Source of the DNA: Pseudomonas fluorescens NCIMB 11764
GTDB lineage: Bacteria > Pseudomonadota > Gammaproteobacteria > Pseudomonadales > Pseudomonadaceae
Assembly: GCF_000293885.2 (NCBI RefSeq)
Contig: NZ_CP010945.1
Location: forward strand, 5,786,001 to 5,850,000
Length of the DNA: 64,000 nucleotides
Direction of reading: 5' to 3'
The position numbers and the translations under genes are program-made. The notes under the pieces were generated by a model that saw only the letters and a program-made list of their open reading frames with translations, made no database searches and was not told the DNA's origin. Positions within the stretch are counted from its first letter, which is position 1. The number at the start of each line of letters is the position of its first letter. Shown in pieces: positions 10,983 through 20,878 of the stretch.

Positions 10983-11731
10983 TCAGCATGCCCCCGAGCG
11001 AGCGTGACCTGCACGCGTATGTGGACCACCAACTCAATGATGACGACCGACGCCTGGTGGAGACTTTTCTGGCCGGTAACGTGGAAATGTCTGCACAGGT
11101 CCGCGCCTGGCAGCAGGACGCCCAGCAACTGCGCGCGGCCCTCAGCGGCGCATTGCAGCAACCGGCCAACCCGGACCTCGACCCGGCGCTGATTCGCCAA
11201 CGCCTCAAGCGCCAATCACGCCGTCACCTGGCCAGCGCTGCGGTGTTGCTGATCGCTGTGAGCATCGGCGGGATCGGCGGCTGGCAGGCGCGGGAGATGA
11301 CCCTCCTCAGCGCTGCGGCACCGATGGCCGATGCGATGCAGGCTTATCGGCTGTTTGCCCAGCAAGGCATGCTGCCGGCCGATTACAAGGTCAGCGACGA
11401 CGGTGATATGCAGGGCTGGCTCGACCGTTATTTCACCCAGGCCCATCGCTTGCCGGACCTGTCCGGCGCAGGGTTCAAACCGGTCAGCGGGCGCTTGCTC
11501 AGCACCGAACAAGGGCCGGCGGCGATGGTGGTTTACGAGGATCGCAGCGGGCACAAAGTCAGCTTCTACGTGCGCCCGCCGGGACCGAGAAACTTCCTGC
11601 TGCCGAGGGGCAGTCGCAGTGACGGTGAATTACAGGCCGAGTATTGGTCGGGGAGCGGTTACAACTACGCGATGGTCAGCCCGACAGACACGCCTGCGGC
11701 GAAAATGCTCAAGCAAACCGTGCAGTTCTGA
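10979..11731 (+). CDS. Transmembrane anti-sigma factor
   Basis: Protein of 250 residues. The N-terminal cytoplasmic part (1-80) has the anti-sigma pattern ERDLHAYVDHQLNDDDRRLVE, as in other membrane anti-sigma factors, but lacks the HxxxCxxC zinc motif. One transmembrane helix follows at about 83-102 (ASAAVLLIAVSIGGIGG). The C-terminal 145 residues are periplasmic and include AMVVYEDRSGHKVSFYVRPP. It overlaps the sigma gene by 4 bp. It is predicted to hold the ECF factor at the membrane until a periplasmic signal, probably oxidative, releases it. Confidence 0.88.
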   Translation: MISMPPSERDLHAYVDHQLNDDDRRLVETFLAGNVEMSAQVRAWQQDAQQLRAALSGALQQPANPDLDPALIRQRLKRQSRRHLASAAVLLIAVSIGGIGGWQAREMTLLSAAAPMADAMQAYRLFAQQGMLPADYKVSDDGDMQGWLDRYFTQAHRLPDLSGAGFKPVSGRLLSTEQGPAAMVVYEDRSGHKVSFYVRPPGPRNFLLPRGSRSDGELQAEYWSGSGYNYAMVSPTDTPAAKMLKQTVQF

Positions 11732-11770
11732 ATACACCACCGTCCCCTGTGGGAGGATTGTTAACCGTAT

Positions 11771-12607
11771 TCAACCCTGCCCGAAGACTTGAGATGGCCG
11801 GCGCAACAGCGGATCAAACGGATTGATCCGCGGCCCGATCAGCGCCGCTTCGCGCTTGAGCATGTCCACTACCGTGGGCAAACGATCCGGCCCGAGCCGA
11901 TCACTCACGGTGGCAACACTCAACGCCGCCACCGCACGCCCTTCACGATCAAGAATCGGCACCGCCACACCAGCCATGCCCTGCAACACGCCGGTGTTGC
12001 GCCCAGCGTAACCGAGGGCACGCACGTTCTCGACTTCCGAGCGCAGGAACACCTCGTCATACAGGTGAAAATCCTTCAGCCGCGGCAAGTTGTAATGAAT
12101 CACCGTGTCGCGTTCCTCTTCGGGCAGGAATGCCAGGATCGCCAGACTGCCCTGCCCCACACCCAGCGCCACCCGCCCGCCGATGTCGCCGGTAAACGTA
12201 CGGATCGGAAACGGCCCTTCACTGCGGTCCAGGCAGATCGCATCAAACCCGCTGCGCGCCAGCAAAAACAACGAATCCCCCAACGAGGCCGAGAGCCGCA
12301 GCAACGACGGCCGCACCAGCTCGCGCAGGTTTCCGGTGTTGCCGGCACGCGCTGCCAGGGCAAAAAAATCCAGGCTCAGGCGATAGCGTTTACTGCGCAC
12401 GTCCTGCTCGACCATACCCTCGTCCATCAGGCTGCGCAGCAGACGGTGCGTGGTCGGTTGCGACAAACCGATGCGCTGGGCCAGTTGCGTCACACTCTCG
12501 CCGCCCTCGACGGTGTCACCCAACGTGCGCAACACGGCAAACAGTCTTGAGACGGCACCGACGCCGACTTCATTTTTATTTTCATTCCGCTCAGTGGAAT
12601 CAGTCAT
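11771..12607 (-). CDS. IclR-family transcriptional regulator
   Basis: Regulator of 278 residues. The N-terminal winged helix-turn-helix is at about 35-85 (SVTQLAQRIGLSQPTTHRLLRSLMDEGMV), followed by the IclR effector-binding domain (SLFLLARSGFDAICLDR, then GYAGRNTGVLQGMAGVAVPI and AALSVATVSDRLG). It is divergent from the ABC transporter/dehydrogenase operon starting at 12850 and is the obvious candidate regulator of it. It is convergent with the anti-sigma gene. Start: the ATG at 12607; the first 15-20 residues are polar and poorly conserved, so a later start cannot be excluded. Confidence 0.9.
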   Translation of the reverse strand: MTDSTERNENKNEVGVGAVSRLFAVLRTLGDTVEGGESVTQLAQRIGLSQPTTHRLLRSLMDEGMVEQDVRSKRYRLSLDFFALAARAGNTGNLRELVRPSLLRLSASLGDSLFLLARSGFDAICLDRSEGPFPIRTFTGDIGGRVALGVGQGSLAILAFLPEEERDTVIHYNLPRLKDFHLYDEVFLRSEVENVRALGYAGRNTGVLQGMAGVAVPILDREGRAVAALSVATVSDRLGPDRLPTVVDMLKREAALIGPRINPFDPLLRRPSQVFGQG

Positions 12608-12632
12608 GTGATTTCTCGACGATTAATTTACT

Positions 12633-12668
12633 CACTGAATGAAACTAAAAATAACCATCGATTCAGTG
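12633..12668. promoter_or_regulatory. Inverted repeat, candidate IclR operator
   Basis: CACTGAAT at 12633-12640 and its complement ATTCAGTG at 12661-12668, 20-bp spacer, in the 242-bp region between the IclR gene and its divergent target operon. A further ATTCC-N7-GGAAT lies within the first codons of the regulator gene. No binding data. Confidence 0.5.
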
Positions 12669-12849
12669 AAATAGGCCATTGAGCCCATCCTAGTCTTCGT
12701 CCTAATCTGCGTCCACAGGGGCGATTCGAACAACAGCGGCAGCCGACTCAAGTCGAGCGCCAACGCACCCGGCAACACCTTTCGTATCTGCCCATACAAA
12801 AAAAGCGCGACCTCAGGCCGCGCATAACAATCTCAGGTGGAGCGCAGTT

Positions 12850-13869
12850 ATGGCTTTTGTGCAACTTGAAGGACTCGGCAAACGCTACGGTGAGATCGAC
12901 GCCGTCGTCGCCACCCACCTCTCGGTCGAGAAAGGTGAGTTCGTTTCCCTGCTCGGCCCCTCCGGCTGCGGCAAAACCACCACCCTGCAAATGATCGCCG
13001 GCTTCGTCGAAGTCACCAGCGGGCGCATTTTGCTCGACGGTCGCGACATCACCCACGCCAAACCTGCCAGCCGCGGTTTGGGTGTGGTGTTCCAGAGCTA
13101 CGCACTGTTCCCGCACATGACCGTCAAAGACAACGTCGCCTTCGGCCTGCGCATGCGCAAGGTGCCCAACGGCGAGTTGCAGCAGCGTGTGGACCGGGTG
13201 CTGAAACTGGTGCGTCTGGACCAGCACGCCGAGCGTTACCCACGAGAACTGTCAGGCGGTCAGCGCCAGCGTGTTGCCCTGGCCCGAGCGCTGGTGATCG
13301 AGCCGCCGGTGCTGTTGCTGGACGAGCCGTTGTCCAACCTCGACGCCAACCTGCGCGAAGAGATGCAGTTCGAGATCCGCCGCATCCAGCGCGAAGTCGG
13401 AATCACCACGTTGATGGTCACCCACGACCAGTCCGAAGCGCTGTCCATCAGCGACCGCGTGGTGGTGATGCAGGCCGGGCGCATTACCCAGATCGATGCG
13501 CCCTACACCCTTTACGAACACCCGCGCACCGAATTCATTTCCGGCTTCGTCGGCAAGGCCAATCTGCTGCCCGGCGAGCGTGACAGTGCGGGTGTGGTTC
13601 AGGTGCGCAGCGGCGGTGAACTGACCCTCAGCCTGCGCCCGGAAAAAATCGATCTGCGGGAAAAAGATCACGGCCGTCTGCAAGGCCAGATCGTCAGCCG
13701 CTTCTTCCTCGGCAGCCAATGGCTCTACGGCGTCTCCACGCCCCTGGGCGAGCTCTGCGTGGTGCGCCGCAACGATGGCTCGGCGCCGATGAACGAAGGC
13801 ACGGCCGTCGGCCTGGACTGGGACGCGGCGCTCCTGCGGGTGCTGAGTGTCGACGAGGTGTCGGCATGA
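12850..13869 (+). CDS. ABC transporter ATP-binding protein, polyamine/opine (PotA-like) type
   Basis: Nucleotide-binding subunit of 339 residues. Walker A is GPSGCGKTT at 36-44, the signature is LSGGQRQRVALARAL, Walker B is LLLDEPLSNLD, and the H-loop is TLMVTHDQSEA. The C-terminal third is a TOBE-type regulatory domain (LSLRPEKIDL). It is the first gene of an operon; both permeases follow with overlap or near-overlap, while the solute-binding protein gene is the last of the operon. Class: import of polyamines, opines or related cationic compounds. The actual substrate is not shown by sequence. Confidence 0.92.
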   Translation: MAFVQLEGLGKRYGEIDAVVATHLSVEKGEFVSLLGPSGCGKTTTLQMIAGFVEVTSGRILLDGRDITHAKPASRGLGVVFQSYALFPHMTVKDNVAFGLRMRKVPNGELQQRVDRVLKLVRLDQHAERYPRELSGGQRQRVALARALVIEPPVLLLDEPLSNLDANLREEMQFEIRRIQREVGITTLMVTHDQSEALSISDRVVVMQAGRITQIDAPYTLYEHPRTEFISGFVGKANLLPGERDSAGVVQVRSGGELTLSLRPEKIDLREKDHGRLQGQIVSRFFLGSQWLYGVSTPLGELCVVRRNDGSAPMNEGTAVGLDWDAALLRVLSVDEVSA

Positions 13870-14735
13870 GCACGCTCGTCGCCCTTCGCCAGGGACGCCA
13901 GGGTTACCTGTTGTCGGCACCGGCGCTGGCGTTGTACGTCTGCCTGCTGGTGATCCCGCTGCTGCTGACGCTGGTGTTGTCGTTCAACGTCTTCGACTAC
14001 AGCTCGGGCATCAACGGTAACGCCTACACCGTCGACCATTACAGCAGCCTGCTGGGTGACCCGTACTTCTACGAAATTTTCCTGCGCACGTTCTGGATCA
14101 GCGCCCTGACCACCCTGCTGTGCGTGGTGATCGGCGTGCCCGAGGCCTACATCCTCAGCCGCATGGGCGCGCCCTGGCGCTCGATTTTCCTGATTCTGAT
14201 CCTCACGCCGTTGCTGATTTCGGTGGTGGTGCGCGCCTTCGGCTGGAGCCTGTTGCTCGGCGCCGACGGCCTGGTCAACCAGACCCTGCAAGCCTTCGGT
14301 GGCTCACCGGTAAAGCTGCTCTACACACCGTTCGCGGTAGTGATCGCGCTGGTCCACGTCATGCTGCCGTTCATGATCATTCCGGTCTGGACCTCGCTGC
14401 AGAAACTCGACCCCGCCGCCGAACAAGCGGCGTTGTCCCTGGGCGCCAGCCATCTCACGGTGATGCGCAAAGTGGTGCTGCCACAGATCATGCCCGGCGT
14501 GCTCTCCGGCACATTGATCGTGTTCGGCCTCGCCGCCAGCTCCTTCGCCATTCCCGGCCTGCTCGGCGGGCGCCGCATCAAGATGGTCGCCACGCTGATC
14601 TACGACCAGTACCTGTCGGAACTCAACTGGCCGATGGGCGCGGCCATCGCCGTCGCGCTGCTGTTGCTCAACCTGCTGATCATGCTGTCGTGGAACCGGA
14701 TGATCGAAGGCCGCTACAAGAAGTCATTGGGATAA
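13866..14735 (+). CDS. ABC transporter permease (PotB-like)
   Basis: Inner-membrane permease of 289 residues with about six hydrophobic segments, starting ALALYVCLLVIPLLLTLVLS. The cytoplasmic EAA loop, which docks to the ATPase, is readable as EQAALSLGASHLTVMRKVVLPQIMPG. The ATG at 13866 overlaps the ATPase stop by 4 bp. It pairs with the permease at 14742. The family is the spermidine/putrescine and iron(III)-type two-permease importers. Confidence 0.93.
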   Translation: MSTLVALRQGRQGYLLSAPALALYVCLLVIPLLLTLVLSFNVFDYSSGINGNAYTVDHYSSLLGDPYFYEIFLRTFWISALTTLLCVVIGVPEAYILSRMGAPWRSIFLILILTPLLISVVVRAFGWSLLLGADGLVNQTLQAFGGSPVKLLYTPFAVVIALVHVMLPFMIIPVWTSLQKLDPAAEQAALSLGASHLTVMRKVVLPQIMPGVLSGTLIVFGLAASSFAIPGLLGGRRIKMVATLIYDQYLSELNWPMGAAIAVALLLLNLLIMLSWNRMIEGRYKKSLG

Positions 14736-14741
14736 CTCGTC

Positions 14742-15536
14742 ATGTCCAAGAACGGTCCTTTCGCCCTGCTGTTCCATACCCTGGTGGTCGTGTTCATGTT
14801 GGCGCCGCTGGTGGTGGTGTGCCTCGTCGCGTTCACCCCGGAAAACACATTGAGCCTGCCGACCACTGAGTTTTCCTTGCGCTGGTTCCGTGCGGTGTTC
14901 GAGCGCGCCGACTTTGTCGATTCGTTTTACAACAGCCTGATCCTGGCGTTCAGCGCCGCCAGTCTGGCGACGTTGATTGCAGTGCCGGCAGCGTTGGCGA
15001 TCACTCGCTTCGAGTTCCCCGGCCGGGACTTTTTCAACGGCCTGTTCCTGTCGCCGATCATCATTCCGCACCTGGTGCTGGGGGTTGCCCTGCTGCGTCT
15101 GTTCGCGCTGATGGGCGTCAACGGCAGCTTCGCCTGGCTGATCTTTGCTCACGTGCTGGTGATCACACCGTATGTGCTGCGTCTGGTGCTGGCGTCGGCC
15201 ATCGGCCTGGATCGCAGCGCCGAACACGCCGCGCAATCGCTGGGTGCCGGGCGCCTCACGCTGTTCCGCCAGATCACCTTGCCGATGATTTTGCCTGGGG
15301 TCGCCGGTGGCTGGCTGCTGGCGTTCATCAACAGTTTCGACGAGGTCACGCTGTCGATCTTCGTCACTTCGCCAGCCACGCAAACCTTGCCGGTGCGCAT
15401 GTACGTGTACGCCACCGAATCCATCGATCCGATGATGGCGGCGGTATCGGCCCTGGTGATTGCGCTGACCGCGGCGACCATGATTCTGCTCGACCGGGTG
15501 TACGGCCTGGATCGGGTTCTGGTGGGTAAACAATGA
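14742..15536 (+). CDS. ABC transporter permease (PotC-like)
   Basis: Second permease, 264 residues, six hydrophobic segments. The EAA loop reads EHAAQSLGAGRLTLFRQITLPMILPG. A conserved FDEVTLSIFVTSP segment follows, typical of the PotC side of the pair. It starts 6 bp after the first permease and is followed after 7 bp by the 2Fe-2S protein, so transporter and dehydrogenase genes are one transcription unit. Confidence 0.93.
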   Translation: MSKNGPFALLFHTLVVVFMLAPLVVVCLVAFTPENTLSLPTTEFSLRWFRAVFERADFVDSFYNSLILAFSAASLATLIAVPAALAITRFEFPGRDFFNGLFLSPIIIPHLVLGVALLRLFALMGVNGSFAWLIFAHVLVITPYVLRLVLASAIGLDRSAEHAAQSLGAGRLTLFRQITLPMILPGVAGGWLLAFINSFDEVTLSIFVTSPATQTLPVRMYVYATESIDPMMAAVSALVIALTAATMILLDRVYGLDRVLVGKQ

Positions 15537-15543
15537 GGGCGCC

Positions 15544-15834
15544 ATGGCTCTGCTGAAACGACTGGCCGAAGGCGATCGCCCGGCCCTGGACTTTACCCTC
15601 GACGGCCAACCGGCCAGCGGGCTGCTCGGCGACACCGTGCTGACCGCGGTGCTGACGTGCAGCGAGCATTTGCGCGGCAGCGATTTCAGCGCCGAGCCTC
15701 GCGCCGGGTTTTGCTTGATGGGGGCGTGCCAGGACTGCTGGGTTCGGCTGGGCGATGGCCGGCGGGTGCGCGCGTGTTCGACGTTGCTCGAAGCCGGCCA
15801 ACACATCAGCCGCGAACCGGGGCGTGCCCTATGA
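15544..15834 (+). CDS. (2Fe-2S)-binding small subunit of an HcnA/opine-oxidase-type dehydrogenase
   Basis: Protein of 96 residues with a plant-ferredoxin-like fold (Fer2_4 type). Four cysteines fit a 2Fe-2S cluster: C57, C62, C65 and C78 (C-x4-C-x2-C-x12-C); C39 is extra. Such subunits are the gamma part of heteromeric dehydrogenases (hydrogen cyanide synthase HcnA, opine oxidase, D-hydroxyproline dehydrogenase) and pass electrons from the flavin subunits. It lies between the permease and the alpha-like flavoprotein, from which it is separated by a REP element of about 95 bp. Confidence 0.85.
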   Translation: MALLKRLAEGDRPALDFTLDGQPASGLLGDTVLTAVLTCSEHLRGSDFSAEPRAGFCLMGACQDCWVRLGDGRRVRACSTLLEAGQHISREPGRAL

Positions 15835-15863
15835 ACCCACCTTTCAACTGCCTCTCCCCAATC

Positions 15864-15959
15864 CCCTGTGGGAGCGAGCCTGCTGGCGATGGCGGAGCAT
15901 CAGCCTCTCTCATTTTTGAATGTGCCACCGTCATCGCCAGCAGGCTGGCTCCCACAGGG
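15864..15959. repeat. REP pair inside the dehydrogenase operon
   Basis: CCCTGTGGGAGCGAGCCTGC...GGCGAT and its complement ATCGCCAGCAGGCTGGCTCCCACAGGG, about 40 bp apart. It lies in the only large gap of an otherwise tightly packed operon, between the small subunit gene and the first flavoprotein gene. Confidence 0.92.
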
Positions 15960-15991
15960 TTTCAGCGGTGGTCGGCTCAAGGGGGGTGGGT

Positions 15992-17347
15992 ATGAAGTCC
16001 GTGGTGATCATCGGTGCCGGGCCGGCCGGGATTCGTGCGGCGCAGACTTTGGTTGCGCATGGCATACGCCCGATTCTGCTGGACGAAGCCGCACGCGGCG
16101 GCGGGCAGATTTATCGGCGTCAGCCGGCGAATTTCAAACGTTCGGCGGTCAAGCTGTATGGCTTCGAAGCCCGCAAGGCGCAGGCGTTGCATCAAACCAT
16201 TGATGAGTTGCGCGACCAGCTCGATTACCGTCCCGACACCCTGGTGTGGAACGCCGAAGACGGTGCACTCGACACCTTGCACGAGGGCTGCGCGGCACGC
16301 CTGGAATTCTCTCGGGTGATCGTCGCCACCGGCGCCACCGACCGGGTTTTGCCGGTACAGGGCTGGACGCTGCCGGGTGTCTATAGCCTCGGCGCCGCGC
16401 AGATCGCCCTGAAATTCCAGGGCTGCGCCATCGGTGAACGAGTGGTGTTCGCCGGCAGCGGGCCGTTGCTGTATCTGGTGGCGTATCAATATGCCAAGGC
16501 CGGCGCCAAAGTGGTTGCGGTACTCGACAGCTCGCCGTTCAGCGCTCAGGCCCGTGCCCTGCCCGTCCTGCTGTCGCAACCGGGCACATTGGCCAAAGGC
16601 ATCTATTACCGCAGCTGGTTGACCGCCCACGGCATCCCGGTGCATCAGGGCGCAACCTTGAAATGCATCAACGGCGAACAACGGGTGCAGTCGCTGAGCT
16701 GGTCCAACTCAAGCGGCGAGCATTCGCTGGACTGTGATGCCGTGGCCTTCGCCCACGGCCTGCGCAGCGAAACCCAACTGGCGGATCTGCTCGGCTGCGC
16801 ATTCGCCTGGAACCCGCTCAACCGCGCCTGGCTGCCGCAACGCGACAGCGCCGGTCGCAGCAGTGTCGCCGAGGTTTACCTGGCCGGTGACGGCGCCGGC
16901 ATCATGGGCGCCGACGCGGCGGAAATGGCCGGCGAACGCGCCGCCCTCGCCTTGCTCGAAGACAACGACTACCCGATCGCGCCGCAGCGTGGCAGGCAAT
17001 TGGAGCAGGCACTTGGACGGATCGATACCTTCCGTCATGGCCTGGAACGCGCTTTCGTATTCCCCGAAAACTGGGCGGCCGATACCGCTGACGACGTAAT
17101 GATCTGTCGCTGCGAAGAAGTGCGCGCCGGGGACATCCGCGAAGTGGTGCGCGAAGGCCATTGGGAAATCAATCGGGTCAAGGCCCATTGCCGGGTCGGC
17201 ATGGGCCGCTGCCAGGGTCGGATGTGTGGTGCCGCGGCGGCGGAAATCATCGCCTGCGAAAGTCAGCGGGCGGTGTCCGGGATCGGTCGACTGCGAGCGC
17301 AGGCGCCGATCAAACCGTTGCCGTTTGGTCTGGAGATCGAACCATGA
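15992..17347 (+). CDS. FAD/NAD(P)-binding dehydrogenase subunit (HcnB / opine oxidase subunit A type) with C-terminal BFD-like 2Fe-2S domain
   Basis: Flavoprotein of 451 residues. The N-terminal dinucleotide fold starts VVIIGAGPAGIRAA (4-17), a second fold is at about 150 (VVFAGSGPLLYL), and the ATGATDR segment is the usual FAD/NAD motif. The C-terminal part has the BFD-like cysteine pattern (ICRCEEV ... HCRVGMGRCQGRMCG), which binds a second 2Fe-2S cluster. In the family this subunit links the substrate-oxidising flavoprotein to the small iron-sulfur subunit. Start: ATG at 15992, with GGGGGGTGGG just ahead. It overlaps the next gene by 4 bp. Confidence 0.87.
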   Translation: MKSVVIIGAGPAGIRAAQTLVAHGIRPILLDEAARGGGQIYRRQPANFKRSAVKLYGFEARKAQALHQTIDELRDQLDYRPDTLVWNAEDGALDTLHEGCAARLEFSRVIVATGATDRVLPVQGWTLPGVYSLGAAQIALKFQGCAIGERVVFAGSGPLLYLVAYQYAKAGAKVVAVLDSSPFSAQARALPVLLSQPGTLAKGIYYRSWLTAHGIPVHQGATLKCINGEQRVQSLSWSNSSGEHSLDCDAVAFAHGLRSETQLADLLGCAFAWNPLNRAWLPQRDSAGRSSVAEVYLAGDGAGIMGADAAEMAGERAALALLEDNDYPIAPQRGRQLEQALGRIDTFRHGLERAFVFPENWAADTADDVMICRCEEVRAGDIREVVREGHWEINRVKAHCRVGMGRCQGRMCGAAAAEIIACESQRAVSGIGRLRAQAPIKPLPFGLEIEP

Positions 17348-18459
17348 TCGAAGTCGATGCAGTCATCATTGGCGGCGGCATTGTCGGGGCTTCCGCTGCG
17401 CTTTTCCTGAGCCAGGCGGGCCGTCGCGTGGTGCTGCTGGAACGGGATTTTTGCGGCTCGCATTCCAGCGGCGTGAACTACGGTGGCGTGCGCCGCCAGG
17501 GCCGACCGCTGTCGCAACTGCCGCTGTCGCAACGTGCCCACGAGATCTGGAGCCGGTTGCCGCAGTTGATCGGCATCGACGGCGAGTACCAGCGCAGCGG
17601 CCACTTGAAACTGGCGCGCAGCCTCGATGACCTGCGCGCGTTGCAGGACTATGCCGCCAGCAGTCAGGGCTTTGGCCTCGATTTGCAGGTGTTCGATCGC
17701 AGTGAATTGCGCGCGCGCTTTCCGTGGGTCGGCGAGGTGGCGGTCGGTGCCTCGTTTTGTCCGGATGACGGTCACGCCAACCCGCGCCTGGTATCGCCAG
17801 CGTTTGCCCGTGCAGCACGGCGCCACGGCGCGCAGGTCCATGAACAATGCGCGGTGGGCGCGGTGGAGCACGACGGCCAGCGCTTTCGCATCAGCACTCA
17901 AAACGGTCTCGAACTGCGGGCCCCCTGGGTGTTGAACTGCGCCGGCGCGTGGGCGGGAAAACTGGCCGAGCAATTCGGCGAAGCCGTGCCGATGCACGCC
18001 GGCCACCCGGCGATGCTGGTCACCGAGCCGCTGCCGTGGGTGATGAACGCCAGCACCGGTGTCGAGGGCGGCGGCATCTATGCGCGCCAGGTCGCGCGCG
18101 GCAATTGTGTGTTGGGCGGCGGTCAGGGCTTTGCCCTCGACGACGCCCGCGCCCGCCCCGGTCAACACGCGGTGATCGAGATCCTGCGCCAGGCGGTCGA
18201 GCTCTACCCGTTTCTTGAAGGCGCCCAGGCGATTCGTACCTGGAGCGGCACCGAAGGTTACCTGCCCGACCGCCAGCCGGTGATCGGCCACAGTGGCACT
18301 CAACCCGGTCTGTTGCACGCGTTCGGCTTTGCCGGCGCAGGTTTCCAGATCGGTCCTGCGGTGGGCCAGGCGCTCACCGAGATCATCTGCAGCGGCGCTT
18401 CAACCACGTCGCTGGATGCGTTTTCCATCACCCGGTTTCACTCCATCTCCGTTGCTTGA
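17344..18459 (+). CDS. FAD-dependent oxidoreductase, DAO family (HcnC / opine oxidase subunit B type)
   Basis: Substrate-oxidising subunit of 371 residues in the D-amino-acid oxidase/sarcosine oxidase fold. The FAD motif is VIIGGGIVGASAAL (8-21), and the C-terminal FAD contact is GFAGAGFQIGPAVG. This subunit oxidises a C-N bond of an imino or amino acid, opine or glycine-like substrate in its relatives; which one cannot be told here. The ATG overlaps the preceding gene by 4 bp. The solute-binding protein follows 18 bp after it. Together with the two preceding subunits it forms a three-part dehydrogenase. Confidence 0.87.
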   Translation: MIEVDAVIIGGGIVGASAALFLSQAGRRVVLLERDFCGSHSSGVNYGGVRRQGRPLSQLPLSQRAHEIWSRLPQLIGIDGEYQRSGHLKLARSLDDLRALQDYAASSQGFGLDLQVFDRSELRARFPWVGEVAVGASFCPDDGHANPRLVSPAFARAARRHGAQVHEQCAVGAVEHDGQRFRISTQNGLELRAPWVLNCAGAWAGKLAEQFGEAVPMHAGHPAMLVTEPLPWVMNASTGVEGGGIYARQVARGNCVLGGGQGFALDDARARPGQHAVIEILRQAVELYPFLEGAQAIRTWSGTEGYLPDRQPVIGHSGTQPGLLHAFGFAGAGFQIGPAVGQALTEIICSGASTTSLDAFSITRFHSISVA

Positions 18460-18477
18460 TAGAGGAAGGTCGCGCCA

Positions 18478-19524
18478 ATGAATAACGTCAAACGCACTGC
18501 ACTGCTCGGTATGTCCTGCTTGGGCGCCTTGCTCACGGTCACCCAGGCCCAGGCCGAGCCGACGCTTTACCTCGGCATGAACGGCGGGACCATGGAGCGG
18601 CTCTACGCCGACAAGGTGCTGCCGGTGTTCGAGAAAGCCAATAACGTCAAAGTGGTGATTGTGCCCGGCACCTCCGCCGATATCCTGGCCAAGGTCCAGG
18701 CCAGCAAAGGCAACCCGCAGATGCACGTGATGTTCCTCGACGACGGCATCATGTACCGCGCCATCGCCATGGGCCTGTGCGACAAACTCGAGGACAGCCC
18801 GACCCTGGCGCAGATTCCGGCCAAGGGCCGTATCAAGGACCAGGCCGTGGCGGTCAGCCTCGGTGTCACGGGGTTGGCGTACAACACGCGATTGTTCAAG
18901 GAAAAAGGCTGGGCCGCGCCGACCTCGTGGATGGACATGGCCGACCCGCGTTTCAAGGACAAACTGGTATTCCAGTCGATGGCCTCGTCAACCTTCGGCC
19001 TGCACGGTTTCCTGATGTTCAACCGGATTCAGGGTGGCAGCGAAACCGACGTCGAACCCGGCTTCAAGGCGTGGCCGAACACTGTCGGGCGCAACGTGCT
19101 GGAATACATTCCGAGCTCGGCGAAGATTTCCGAAATGCTCCAGACCGACGAAGCGGCGCTGTTCCCGCTGACACCGACGCAAGTCACGGCGCTGAAACTC
19201 AAAGGCATGCCGATCGAGTACGCGCAACCGAAGGAAGGCGCGGTGGTGCTCAACGTTGCCGAATGCGCCATCGCCAACAACACCCAGCCGGAACTGGCAC
19301 AGAAACTCGCCGCGTTTCTGCTGACGCCCGAGGCGCAAGCCGCTGCGCTTGAAGATGGCGATCAGATCCCGTCCAACCCGAATACCCCGACCACCGACAA
19401 GACTCGCGGCCAGGTCGAGGCGATGAAGCAGTACCTGACAACGGCGATTGCCATCGACTGGGATCAGGTCAACGAACAGCGCCCGGCGTGGAATGCGCGG
19501 TGGAATCGCAGTATCGAGCGGTAG
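18478..19524 (+). CDS. Periplasmic solute-binding protein, polyamine/opine ABC importer
   Basis: Binding protein of 348 residues with a clean Sec signal peptide (cleavage after about residue 26, ...VTQAQA). The mature part reads as a two-lobe PotD/SBP_bac_8 protein: LYLGMNGGTMERLY, then VKVVIVPGTSADILAKV, and WNARWNR near the end. It is the last gene of the operon and is preceded by AGAGGAAGG. It gives the transporter its specificity; the ligand is probably the substrate of the co-encoded dehydrogenase. Confidence 0.9.
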   Translation: MNNVKRTALLGMSCLGALLTVTQAQAEPTLYLGMNGGTMERLYADKVLPVFEKANNVKVVIVPGTSADILAKVQASKGNPQMHVMFLDDGIMYRAIAMGLCDKLEDSPTLAQIPAKGRIKDQAVAVSLGVTGLAYNTRLFKEKGWAAPTSWMDMADPRFKDKLVFQSMASSTFGLHGFLMFNRIQGGSETDVEPGFKAWPNTVGRNVLEYIPSSAKISEMLQTDEAALFPLTPTQVTALKLKGMPIEYAQPKEGAVVLNVAECAIANNTQPELAQKLAAFLLTPEAQAAALEDGDQIPSNPNTPTTDKTRGQVEAMKQYLTTAIAIDWDQVNEQRPAWNARWNRSIER

Positions 19525-19561
19525 GCAACTGACGCGGCACTGTCAGTAAAACAATGCAAAA

Positions 19562-19601
19562 CCCTGTGGGAGCGGCGGTGCGACTTGCCCGCTCCCACTG
19601 G
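19562..19601. repeat. Short REP palindrome
   Basis: CCCTGTGGGAGCGGCGG ... CCCGCTCCCACTGG, following the solute-binding protein gene; it may also end transcription of the operon. Confidence 0.7.
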
Positions 19602-19747
19602 TCCGCGCCAAGTAACAAACTTCACCGCCAGCCCCCCCCGTTTTGCACCCCGCACTTGTCTACACAACTGGCAGCCAATTTCCCGTATTGGTTACACTAC
19701 GCCGCCGCAGCTCGGTGAGCCTGCCTGACGATAACGGGGTGATATCA

Positions 19748-20878
19748 GTGGCCGTTCGACCGCCTGACCGTTCGCGATTCACACCACGCTGGCCTGCGCT
19801 GCGCCGCCTCTTCGGCAAGGCATCGACCGCCTCCGCCAGTCATTGCGCGACGGGACGCGCCGTCCATGACTACTTTCGCCACAAGGCTCATTCCCAGGGT
19901 TACACACTCAGCCACAGCCAACAGCGCGTGATCGACTGCATGGCGCAGCACGCCGCGGTACTGCTTGGTACTTCATCGAAACCATTGCCGGGGCTTTACC
20001 TGCATGGCGCCGTCGGTCGCGGAAAGAGCTGGTTGCTCGACGGTTTTTTCCAGGCCCTGCCCATCGCGGAAAAACAGCGCCTGCACTTTCATGAGTTTTT
20101 CGCCCGCCTGCACCAGGGCATGTTCAGTCATCGCGACCACCCTGATGCGCTGGCGACCACGCTGGACGAGCTGCTGAGCGATTGCCGGGTCCTGTGCTTC
20201 GACGAGTTTCACGTCCATGACATCGGCGATGCAATGCTCATTACGCGGTTGTTCAAGGCCCTGTTCCGCCGCGGCATCCTGCTGTTGGTCACGTCGAATT
20301 ACCCACCCGAAGGTTTGCTGCCCAACCCGCTCTACCATGCGCGTTTCAAACCGGTGATCGACTTGATCAACGCCCGCATGCAAGTGATGGAAGTCGGCGG
20401 CCCTCACGATTACCGCAGTCAGGCGAGACATCACGCCCAGCAGCTGTTTACCCAAGGCCACTACATTTGGCCGGCCACCGTGGCACAGCGTCAGGCGTTC
20501 AACCTGCCCGAACCCGACGCGCCGGCCATTGCTCTGCCCGTCGGGGCTCGACATCTTCCAGCCCGGTATTGCGAAGGACGCACCATCGGATTCACCTTCG
20601 CCGACCTGTGCGACCACCCCACCGCGGTCATGGATTACCTGGAACTGTGCCGCCGTTTCGATCACTGGATCATCGACGGGCTGCCCAACCTCGCCGACTG
20701 CCCGATCGCCGCGCAGCAGCGCTTCATCAATCTGGTGGACGTTTTGTATGACCAGGACAAGCATTTGATCCTGCTGGGCCAGCGGTCGTTGCGCGAGAAC
20801 CTGGGCGGCGATGCCATTGATCTGGCACGCACCCGCAGCCGGCTGGGGCAGTTGGTGGAGGTCAGGGAACCGGTCTGA
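19748..20878 (+). CDS. zapE: ZapE/AFG1-like AAA ATPase
   Basis: ATPase of about 376 residues (E. coli ZapE is about 375). Walker A is GAVGRGKS in LYLHGAVGRGKSWLLDGF, Walker B is VLCFDEFHVHDIGDAM, and the family segments HFHEFFARLH and LLVTSNYPPEGLLPNPL are clear. ZapE is reported to act at the division ring under stress and low oxygen; the mitochondrial relative AFG1 helps complex IV quality control. Start: GTG at 19748 after GGGGTG; the frame is open further upstream, so this is a choice. The N-terminal 60 residues differ from the E. coli protein, so it may be a second, divergent paralogue. Confidence 0.82.
   Translation: MAVRPPDRSRFTPRWPALRRLFGKASTASASHCATGRAVHDYFRHKAHSQGYTLSHSQQRVIDCMAQHAAVLLGTSSKPLPGLYLHGAVGRGKSWLLDGFFQALPIAEKQRLHFHEFFARLHQGMFSHRDHPDALATTLDELLSDCRVLCFDEFHVHDIGDAMLITRLFKALFRRGILLLVTSNYPPEGLLPNPLYHARFKPVIDLINARMQVMEVGGPHDYRSQARHHAQQLFTQGHYIWPATVAQRQAFNLPEPDAPAIALPVGARHLPARYCEGRTIGFTFADLCDHPTAVMDYLELCRRFDHWIIDGLPNLADCPIAAQQRFINLVDVLYDQDKHLILLGQRSLRENLGGDAIDLARTRSRLGQLVEVREPV

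What the first reader, a model, noticed from the sequence alone, without database searches (positions are those of the whole stretch)
12633..19524. Operon joining a polyamine-type ABC importer with a three-subunit FAD/2Fe-2S dehydrogenase under an IclR regulator
Seven co-oriented genes, most overlapping by 4 bp, encode a complete importer (ATPase, two permeases, binding protein) and all three subunits of an HcnABC/opine-oxidase/hydroxyproline-dehydrogenase-like enzyme. A divergent IclR gene and an inverted repeat (12633-12668) provide control. Known relatives use AraC or other regulators and known substrates (opines, D-hydroxyproline, glycine for HCN). Importer plus oxidase encoded together imply one dedicated imino or amino compound that cannot be named from sequence. 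This is the best candidate for a new catabolic pathway here.
Basis: partly seen in the sequence, partly recalled or inferred. Interest (0 to 1): 0.75.

Follow-up and report, generated by a model that had tools for sequence, protein, structure and literature searches.

The report
Probable pipecolate import and oxidation operon
This Pseudomonas operon makes its own importer and a three-part dehydrogenase, and related operons in other bacteria sit beside the genes that break down pipecolate (a lysine product), so it most likely feeds the cell on pipecolate or a very similar compound.

Summary
In detail: seven co-oriented genes (12850-19524) encode an ABC importer and the gamma, alpha and beta subunits of an OdhABC/D-HypDH-type dehydrogenase, with a divergent IclR gene. 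The same eight genes in the same order occur in 75 of 80 Pseudomonas loci (the other five are cut by contig ends) and in 45 of 56 loci from Burkholderiales-type bacteria, Azospirillum and Ensifer. That is a palindrome, ATTCC-N7-GGAAT at 12584-12600, in 73 of 75 Pseudomonas loci. In several Burkholderiales-type genera the operon is joined to amaB (piperideine-6-carboxylate dehydrogenase), an aminotransferase and hglS, the lower pipecolate pathway: AmaB neighbours it in 11 of 56 loci (one record seen twice), in 10 of these on the same strand 50-293 bp away. The best-matching solved relative of beta is archaeal L-proline dehydrogenase. Best reading: import and oxidation of L-pipecolate, or a close lysine-derived imino acid, to piperideine-6-carboxylate. 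Against: no such linkage in 87 Pseudomonas loci, Pseudomonas already has AmaA, and nothing was assayed.

The parts
11771..12607 (-). IclR-family regulator, divergent
   Evidence: PF09339 and PF01614 over cut-off; in the same place in 75 of 80 Pseudomonas loci
12584..12600 (.). Conserved palindrome ATTCCGCTCAGTGGAAT, proposed IclR operator (inside the first codons of the annotated iclR ORF)
   Evidence: ATTCC-N7-GGAAT in 73 of 75 Pseudomonas regions (26 of them aligned); core TTCC-N7-GGAA in 37 of the 46 non-Pseudomonas regions that could be cut out, 0.24 expected from mononucleotide shuffles; the only exact match of the 17-base pattern in the genome
12632..12669 (.).
   Evidence: left arm in 21 of 75
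12850..13869 (+). ABC importer ATPase (polyamine/2-AEP type, TOBE_2)
13866..14735 (+). ABC permease, PotB-like
   Evidence: overlaps the ATPase gene by 4 bp
14742..15536 (+). ABC permease, PotC-like
15544..15834 (+). gamma subunit, 2Fe-2S protein (C-X4-C-X2-C-X12-C)
   Evidence: PF13510; motif at residue 57
15864..15959 (.). REP-like inverted pair inside the operon
   Evidence: 32-nt arms, 94% complementary; similar copies elsewhere in the window
15992..17347 (+). alpha subunit: Pyr_redox_2 FAD domain plus BFD-like 2Fe-2S domain
17344..18459 (+). beta (catalytic) subunit, DAO family; R-x-W motif at residues 298-300
   Evidence: PF01266 252 bits; best PDB match 1y56_B; motif
18478..19524 (+). 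Periplasmic solute-binding protein of the importer
   Evidence: PF13416; orthologs E<=1e-100 in 98 of 249 and 7 of 150 genomes of two related families

Best explanation
The operon is a self-contained scavenging unit for a cyclic imino acid derived from lysine, most likely L-pipecolate. The binding protein and PotABC-like importer bring it in. The alpha-beta-gamma flavoenzyme (by analogy with OdhABC: FAD in beta and alpha, FMN between them, 2Fe-2S in gamma and in the BFD domain of alpha) oxidises the ring C-N bond to give delta1-piperideine-6-carboxylate / aminoadipate semialdehyde, passing electrons to the respiratory chain. AmaB, a 2-aminoadipate aminotransferase, HglS and D-2-hydroxyglutarate dehydrogenase then carry the carbon to 2-oxoglutarate. 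In Pseudomonas AmaB is encoded elsewhere (amaBA). IclR controls the operon through the ATTCC-N7-GGAAT palindrome. Shown here: gene content, conservation, palindrome, and linkage to amaB, hglS and an aminotransferase in some Burkholderiales-type genomes. Inferred: substrate, stereochemistry, cofactor placement, electron acceptor and regulation.
For: (1) AmaB-like proteins beside the operon pass NCBI's L-piperidine-6-carboxylate dehydrogenase equivalog (822 and 798 bits, cut-off 730). HglS near G278's operon passes its equivalog (716 vs 550); PF07063 matches the shorter Caballeronia neighbour. (2) AmaB is the commonest flanking family: 11 of 56 loci, the aminotransferase in 9. In 10 of the 11, AmaB is on the same strand 50-293 bp from the operon. 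G782, not among the 11, has hglS-aminotransferase-amaB beyond iclR, AmaB about 10 kb from the binding-protein gene. (3) Arrangements differ: hglS-AT-amaB upstream on the operon's strand with no IclR gene labelled nearby (L145/L213); amaB directly after the binding-protein gene (L173, L210, L214, L215, L224, L225); amaB inverted nearby (L205). By coordinates, AmaB lies within 12 kb of the binding-protein ortholog in 16 of 98 genomes of one family, all 13 of genus g249 among them, and in 3 of 7 of another. (4) AmaB is over cut-off in 119 of 120 genomes carrying the beta or binding-protein ortholog (miss G801) against 9 of 18 without it. (5) In the beta tree the Pseudomonas clade falls in a supported set (97/96) with 8 AmaB-linked rows and 10 others. 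(6) The best PDB relative of beta is 1y56_B, recalled to be L-proline dehydrogenase, whose substrate is the five-ring homologue.
Against: 45 of 56 loci show no AmaB nearby, and 0 of 87 Pseudomonas loci have a relative of AmaB, the aminotransferase or HglS in the stretch held. Pseudomonas genomes already hold AmaA: 26 of 26 tested, 14 with and 12 without the operon, so there the operon is not needed for pipecolate formed inside the cell. AmaA is over its cut-off in none of the other carriers (0 of 16, 0 of 77, 0 of 13), but this does not single out the operon: 18 genomes without it, 9 of them with AmaB, lack AmaA too, and 24 of the 77 carriers hold a half-scoring AmaA relative (301-430 bits), as do several of the 16, that might do the step. 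G801 has the operon but no AmaB. Carriers were chosen by the binding-protein ortholog; at least G612 has that relative without the operon in the stretch read (L231). A clade with a peptide-type importer and SSADH/GABA-transaminase/tartrate-dehydrogenase-like neighbours nests inside the family, so specificity has probably shifted. L versus D cannot be told.
Confidence: 0.52

Rival explanations
1. The substrate is an open-chain lysine derivative whose oxidation also gives aminoadipate semialdehyde, such as saccharopine or an N-epsilon-substituted lysine (methyl-, carboxymethyl-): the lysine-type opine reading.
For: The same AmaB/aminotransferase/HglS linkage; the enzyme family includes opine dehydrogenases (PMC4575208, Results read).
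Against: The best solved relative acts on proline, a cyclic imino acid (recalled); the Ti-plasmid NoxB is only 25.5% identical and falls far away in the tree, on a long and uncertain branch.
Confidence: 0.15
2. The linkage is a recruitment in some Burkholderiales-type lineages, and the Pseudomonas operon oxidises another amine or imino acid that cannot yet be named.
For: No lysine-branch genes beside the operon in 87 Pseudomonas loci; AmaA already present; a nested clade with other neighbours suggests that specificity can shift.
Against: Same gene order, regulator and palindrome core; AmaB-linked rows are among the nearest non-Pseudomonas relatives; AmaB present in all 14 Pseudomonas carriers tested.
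Confidence: 0.25
3. It is a hydroxyproline, opine (octopine/nopaline) or HCN-type enzyme as in the named relatives.
For: Same three-subunit architecture; order gamma-alpha-beta as reported for Burkholderia thailandensis OdhC-A-B (PMC4575208).
Against: Relatives of the arginase, ornithine cyclodeaminase and octopine/nopaline dehydrogenase genes of Ti plasmids are beside the operon in 0 of 87 Pseudomonas and 0 of 56 other loci. HcnC, D-HypDH and BjOdhB2/BtOdhB sequences were not compared.
Confidence: 0.05

Closest known systems
Flavin-containing opine dehydrogenase OdhABC (P. putida PP_4456/4457; B. japonicum OdhB2), PMC4575208
   Same: alpha, beta and gamma subunits, gamma 2Fe-2S motif, R-x-W motif in beta, linked ABC importer genes; the B. 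thailandensis cluster shares the C-A-B gene order
   Different: Predicted lysine-branch substrate; PotABC-type importer; IclR as a member of the conserved unit. Direct comparison was possible only with a nopaline Ti-plasmid beta subunit (taken to be NoxB from its place, 25.5% identity).
Archaeal L-proline dehydrogenase PDH (PDB 1y56; identity recalled, the PDB name is sarcosine oxidase)
   Same: beta is the best PDB match, 115 bits; alpha's best PDB match is 1y56_A; similar ring C-N chemistry expected
   Different: Gamma-type domain fused to alpha in the archaeal enzyme (PMC4575208); five-membered substrate
AmaA, monomeric L-pipecolate oxidase of Pseudomonas (NF050086)
   Same: Proposed to catalyse the same step; DAO-type flavoprotein
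   Different: Single subunit; the beta subunit scores 68 bits against a cut-off of 600
LysR-type cousin operon (L133, L134, L181 and others)
   Same: PotABC-type importer plus gamma-alpha-beta genes
   Different: Binding-protein gene first, extra DAO gene, RidA-like small protein and LysR-like regulator (labels by eye); beta 34-37% identical

Membership tests
Heteromeric FAD/FMN/2Fe-2S amine dehydrogenases (OdhABC, D-HypDH, HcnABC type) | Adjacent genes for alpha, beta and gamma subunits | tested here: met
Heteromeric FAD/FMN/2Fe-2S amine dehydrogenases (OdhABC, D-HypDH, HcnABC type) | gamma C-X4-C-X2-C-X11/12-C | tested here: met
Heteromeric FAD/FMN/2Fe-2S amine dehydrogenases (OdhABC, D-HypDH, HcnABC type) | ADP-binding GxGxxG in alpha and beta; R-x-W in beta | tested here: met
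Heteromeric FAD/FMN/2Fe-2S amine dehydrogenases (OdhABC, D-HypDH, HcnABC type) | alpha C-X-C-X15~20-C-X4-C as printed in PMC4575208 | tested here: inconclusive
   BFD domain over the Pfam cut-off, but the spacing is C-X-C-X25-C-X6-C-X4-C
Heteromeric FAD/FMN/2Fe-2S amine dehydrogenases (OdhABC, D-HypDH, HcnABC type) | Dye-linked dehydrogenase activity, FAD and FMN content | not testable with these tools
   needs purified enzyme
Opine dehydrogenase type 1 (Nox/Oox) | beta clusters with NoxB; gene order B-C-A | tested here: not met
   order is C-A-B; 25.5% identity to the Ti-plasmid beta and separate placement, though that row is a long branch
Opine dehydrogenase type 2 (BjOdhB2/BtOdhB) | beta clusters with BjOdhB2 | not tested
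   sequence not at hand; only the C-A-B order agrees
L-pipecolate oxidase AmaA | NF050086 equivalog cut-off 600 bits | tested here: not met
   67.8 bits
Pipecolate to 2-oxoglutarate pathway (functional, not sequence, membership) | Linked to amaB, aminotransferase and hglS | tested here: inconclusive
   met in a minority of loci: AmaB in 11 of 56, plus G782; met in 0 of 87 Pseudomonas loci
PotABCD or 2-aminoethylphosphonate importer | Curated equivalog/subfamily cut-offs | tested here: not met
   ATPase 341 vs 355.6 (TIGR01187) and 357 vs 457.7 (TIGR03265); binding protein 71 vs 395 (PhnS)
IclR regulators | IclR HTH and C-terminal domains | tested here: met

The most novel reading that the evidence does not exclude
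A three-subunit respiratory L-pipecolate dehydrogenase with its own pipecolate importer and an ATTCC-N7-GGAAT/IclR switch, spread across Alpha-, Beta- and Gammaproteobacteria. It would be a second, independent solution to the AmaA step, used to eat pipecolate released by plants (a plant immune signal by recalled knowledge), so that plant-associated bacteria may draw down that signal.
Probability: 0.4. Interest if true: 0.62.

Novelty: new member of a known kind. Interest (0 to 1): 0.5.

Why it matters
If true, it gives a substrate to a conserved operon whose catalytic gene carries only generic names in the sources listed (FAD-dependent oxidoreductase, sarcosine oxidase subunit beta), supplies a dedicated importer for pipecolate, and adds a substrate to the HCN synthase / opine / hydroxyproline dehydrogenase family. 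It makes directly testable whether soil and plant-associated bacteria consume a plant immune metabolite.

Tried and rejected
HCN synthase, opine and hydroxyproline readings were put low: the opine partner genes of Ti plasmids are beside the operon in 0 of 143 loci; HCN and hydroxyproline enzymes were not compared by sequence. The neighbouring sigma-factor, anti-sigma, catalase-like, AFG1-like, LRR-kinase-like and YebC genes (labels by eye) were rejected as partners, since loci such as L105-L107, L109-L113, L116 and L117 have the operon without them. Clusters resembling fimbriae between the binding-protein gene and AFG1 in some relatives were read as unrelated. A predicted structure of the beta subunit had mean pLDDT 64, with an alignment of 34 sequences all 74% or more identical to the first; it was not used and no fold search was made. 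Literature: ten full-text searches listed no paper that by title or abstract start reports this operon or a multi-subunit pipecolate dehydrogenase; most subscription journals are not held. PMC4575208 was read for abstract, Introduction and all of Results and Discussion; PMC5979394 and PMC8305402 as passages only, nothing on this operon seen; others only as search listings. AmaA absence was tested as support and weakened by its control. Rfam on 11000-20500 and a tRNA scan of the window were empty.
Full report
Observation. The window lies in a 6,998,154-base single-contig genome, and the nearest named relatives are Pseudomonas (beta 97% identical in P. migulae). Seven co-oriented ORFs run from 12850 to 19524, with an IclR gene divergent at 11771-12607. 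Pfam gives ABC_tran plus TOBE_2, two BPD_transp_1 permeases, Fer2_4, Pyr_redox_2 with Fer2_BFD, DAO and SBP_bac_8. Junction gaps are -4, +6, +7, +157, -4 and +18 bp, so the statement that most genes overlap by 4 bp is wrong. The 157-bp gap contains a REP-like inverted pair; in the 75 complete Pseudomonas loci this gap varies from -1 to 1510 bp, measured from BLAST ends.

Conservation. One search kept the best 80 of 231 relatives, all Pseudomonas; 75 have all eight genes in the same order and strands, and the other five are cut by contig ends. Eleven Pseudomonas loci with other neighbours, four of them among the 80, keep the order with nothing consistently added. Annotated or called genes show the same eight-gene order in Paraburkholderia and Azospirillum and on Ensifer, Azospirillum, Burkholderia and Paraburkholderia plasmids. 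In one search, 45 of 56 non-Pseudomonas loci show it complete. The other 11 are L145, L172, L212 and L213 (Caballeronia type, no IclR labelled), L147 and L223 (IclR not labelled, perhaps missed by my gene caller), L144 and L238 (genes not labelled), and L231, L233 and L235 (only a binding-protein relative in the stretch read). Binding-protein orthologs (E<=1e-100) are in 98 of 249 genomes of the family of G302 and 7 of 150 of the family of G278.

The enzyme. The gamma subunit has C-X4-C-X2-C-X12-C, alpha and beta have GxGxxG, and beta has R-T-W. These are the motifs listed for this enzyme family in PMC4575208. The alpha cysteine spacing differs from the one printed there. The best solved match of beta is 1y56_B, 115 bits, ahead of glycine oxidase at 94; that 1y56 is L-proline dehydrogenase is recalled, the PDB name being sarcosine oxidase. 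In that paper P. putida OdhABC is a dye-linked nopaline dehydrogenase with FAD, FMN and a 2Fe-2S cluster, which is the basis for the mechanism proposed here.

The substrate clue. In one search the commonest neighbouring family was AmaB, in 11 of 56 loci, and an aminotransferase was in 9. L145 and L213 are probably one record seen twice, so 10 of 55 are distinct. AmaB neighbours score 822 and 798 bits against the L-piperidine-6-carboxylate dehydrogenase equivalog (cut-off 730). HglS near G278's operon scores 716 against 550, and the Caballeronia neighbour is PF07063; pieces of HglS relatives also appear at the edges of L214 and L224. The aminotransferase is only placed as class I/II; the name 2-aminoadipate aminotransferase is inferred. 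In four loci a GlcD-like oxidase also lies beside it; D-2-hydroxyglutarate dehydrogenase is a guess for it. In L145 hglS, aminotransferase, amaB and the seven importer, dehydrogenase and binding-protein genes follow one another on one strand. In L173, L210, L214, L215, L224 and L225 amaB follows the binding-protein gene after 50-100 bp. In G782 hglS-aminotransferase-amaB lies beyond a LysR-like gene next to iclR.

How often. From printed coordinates, AmaB is within 12 kb of the binding-protein ortholog in 16 of 98 genomes of the G302 family: all 13 of genus g249, and G302, G474 and G685 of g75. In the G278 family it is so in 3 of 7 (G278, G748, and G782 at about 10 kb), with G771 at about 17 kb. 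One gene in several thousand would rarely fall there by chance, but the genomes are related and the independent events are few, perhaps four to six (my judgement). In 87 Pseudomonas loci no relative of AmaB, the aminotransferase or HglS lies in the stretch held. AmaB is over its cut-off in 42 of 43 genomes with the beta or binding-protein ortholog and 77 of 77, the miss being G801, and in 9 of 18 genomes without it. The 77 were chosen by the binding-protein ortholog alone, and G612 among them shows it without the operon (L231). For the non-Pseudomonas genomes, 28 of 29 against 9 of 18 gives Fisher p = 0.0003, without correction for kinship.

A test that cut both ways. AmaA, the one-subunit pipecolate oxidase, is over its cut-off in 26 of 26 Pseudomonas, with or without the operon, and in 0 of 16 others, 0 of 77 and 0 of 13 further carriers. 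But the 18 genomes without the operon, 9 of them with AmaB, also have none, and 24 of the 77 hold a relative scoring about half to two thirds of the cut-off. So the operon is not shown to be the missing AmaA, and in Pseudomonas the two would be redundant for L-pipecolate made inside the cell. Uptake of outside pipecolate would be the distinct role.

Tree. In a 78-row tree of beta subunits the 11 Pseudomonas rows form one clade (100/100) inside a supported set of 29 rows (97/96) with AmaB-linked L204, L205, L210, L173, L214, L215, L224 and L225. Three Caballeronia-type AmaB-linked rows lie in another clade. The label count in that output covers only two groups and says little. A clade with a peptide-type importer, beside SSADH-, GABA-transaminase- and tartrate-dehydrogenase-like genes, nests inside the set, so specificity has probably changed at least once. 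The Ti-plasmid NoxB, AmaA and 1y56_B rows are long branches of unsure place.

Control region. The core TTCC-N7-GGAA is in 37 of the 46 non-Pseudomonas regions that could be cut out of the 56 loci, 0.24 expected from shuffles. With R and Y required at the inner positions it occurs once in each AmaB-linked stretch that keeps IclR, between iclR and the ATPase gene; L145 and L213 have one copy inside amaB instead, L172 and L212 none. In this genome the 17-base pattern has one exact match; five other places have two mismatches, against two for the backwards control, so no clear second target is indicated. In the window the site falls in the first codons of the annotated iclR ORF, while in the non-Pseudomonas loci it mostly lies before the called iclR start; the true start may be downstream.

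Verdict. The operon is real, widely conserved and built of known parts, and its substrate class can be proposed. I put 0.52 on pipecolate or a close cyclic lysine product, 0.15 on open-chain lysine derivatives giving the same product, 0.25 on a different Pseudomonas substrate, and 0.05 on the named HCN, opine or hydroxyproline functions.

Noticed in passing
window 15864-15959; also 40014, 43722, 43795, 53725: REP-like elements; two look like paired doublets, one inside the operon between the gamma and alpha genes, a gap that varies from -1 to 1510 bp among 75 Pseudomonas loci.
   Followed up: partly
L046, L062, L089, L097, L099, L102: A cluster resembling chaperone-usher fimbriae genes (label by eye) lies between the binding-protein gene and the AFG1-like gene, or follows the binding-protein gene, in these relatives.
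   Followed up: no
L126-L130, L132 and L136: Related three-subunit dehydrogenase (beta about 45-47% identical) with a peptide-type ABC importer and SSADH-, GABA-transaminase- and tartrate-dehydrogenase-like genes; nests inside the family in the tree.
   Followed up: partly
L133, L134, L181, L182, L184-L187: Cousin operon with a LysR-like regulator, binding-protein gene first, an extra DAO gene and a RidA-like protein, in Pseudomonas and other Proteobacteria.
   Followed up: no
L144:1-4573: In Microvirga the operon lies beside relatives of genes that flank the peptide-importer clade, a second possible functional link.
   Followed up: partly
window 12566-12607: The annotated iclR start puts the conserved palindrome inside the coding region; a start near codon 14 would put it upstream.
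   Followed up: no
L138:6777-14175: Rhizobium sp. BG4 gamma-alpha-beta genes (beta about 43% identical) with an amino-acid-type importer, an IclR gene and an MmgE/PrpD gene.
   Followed up: no
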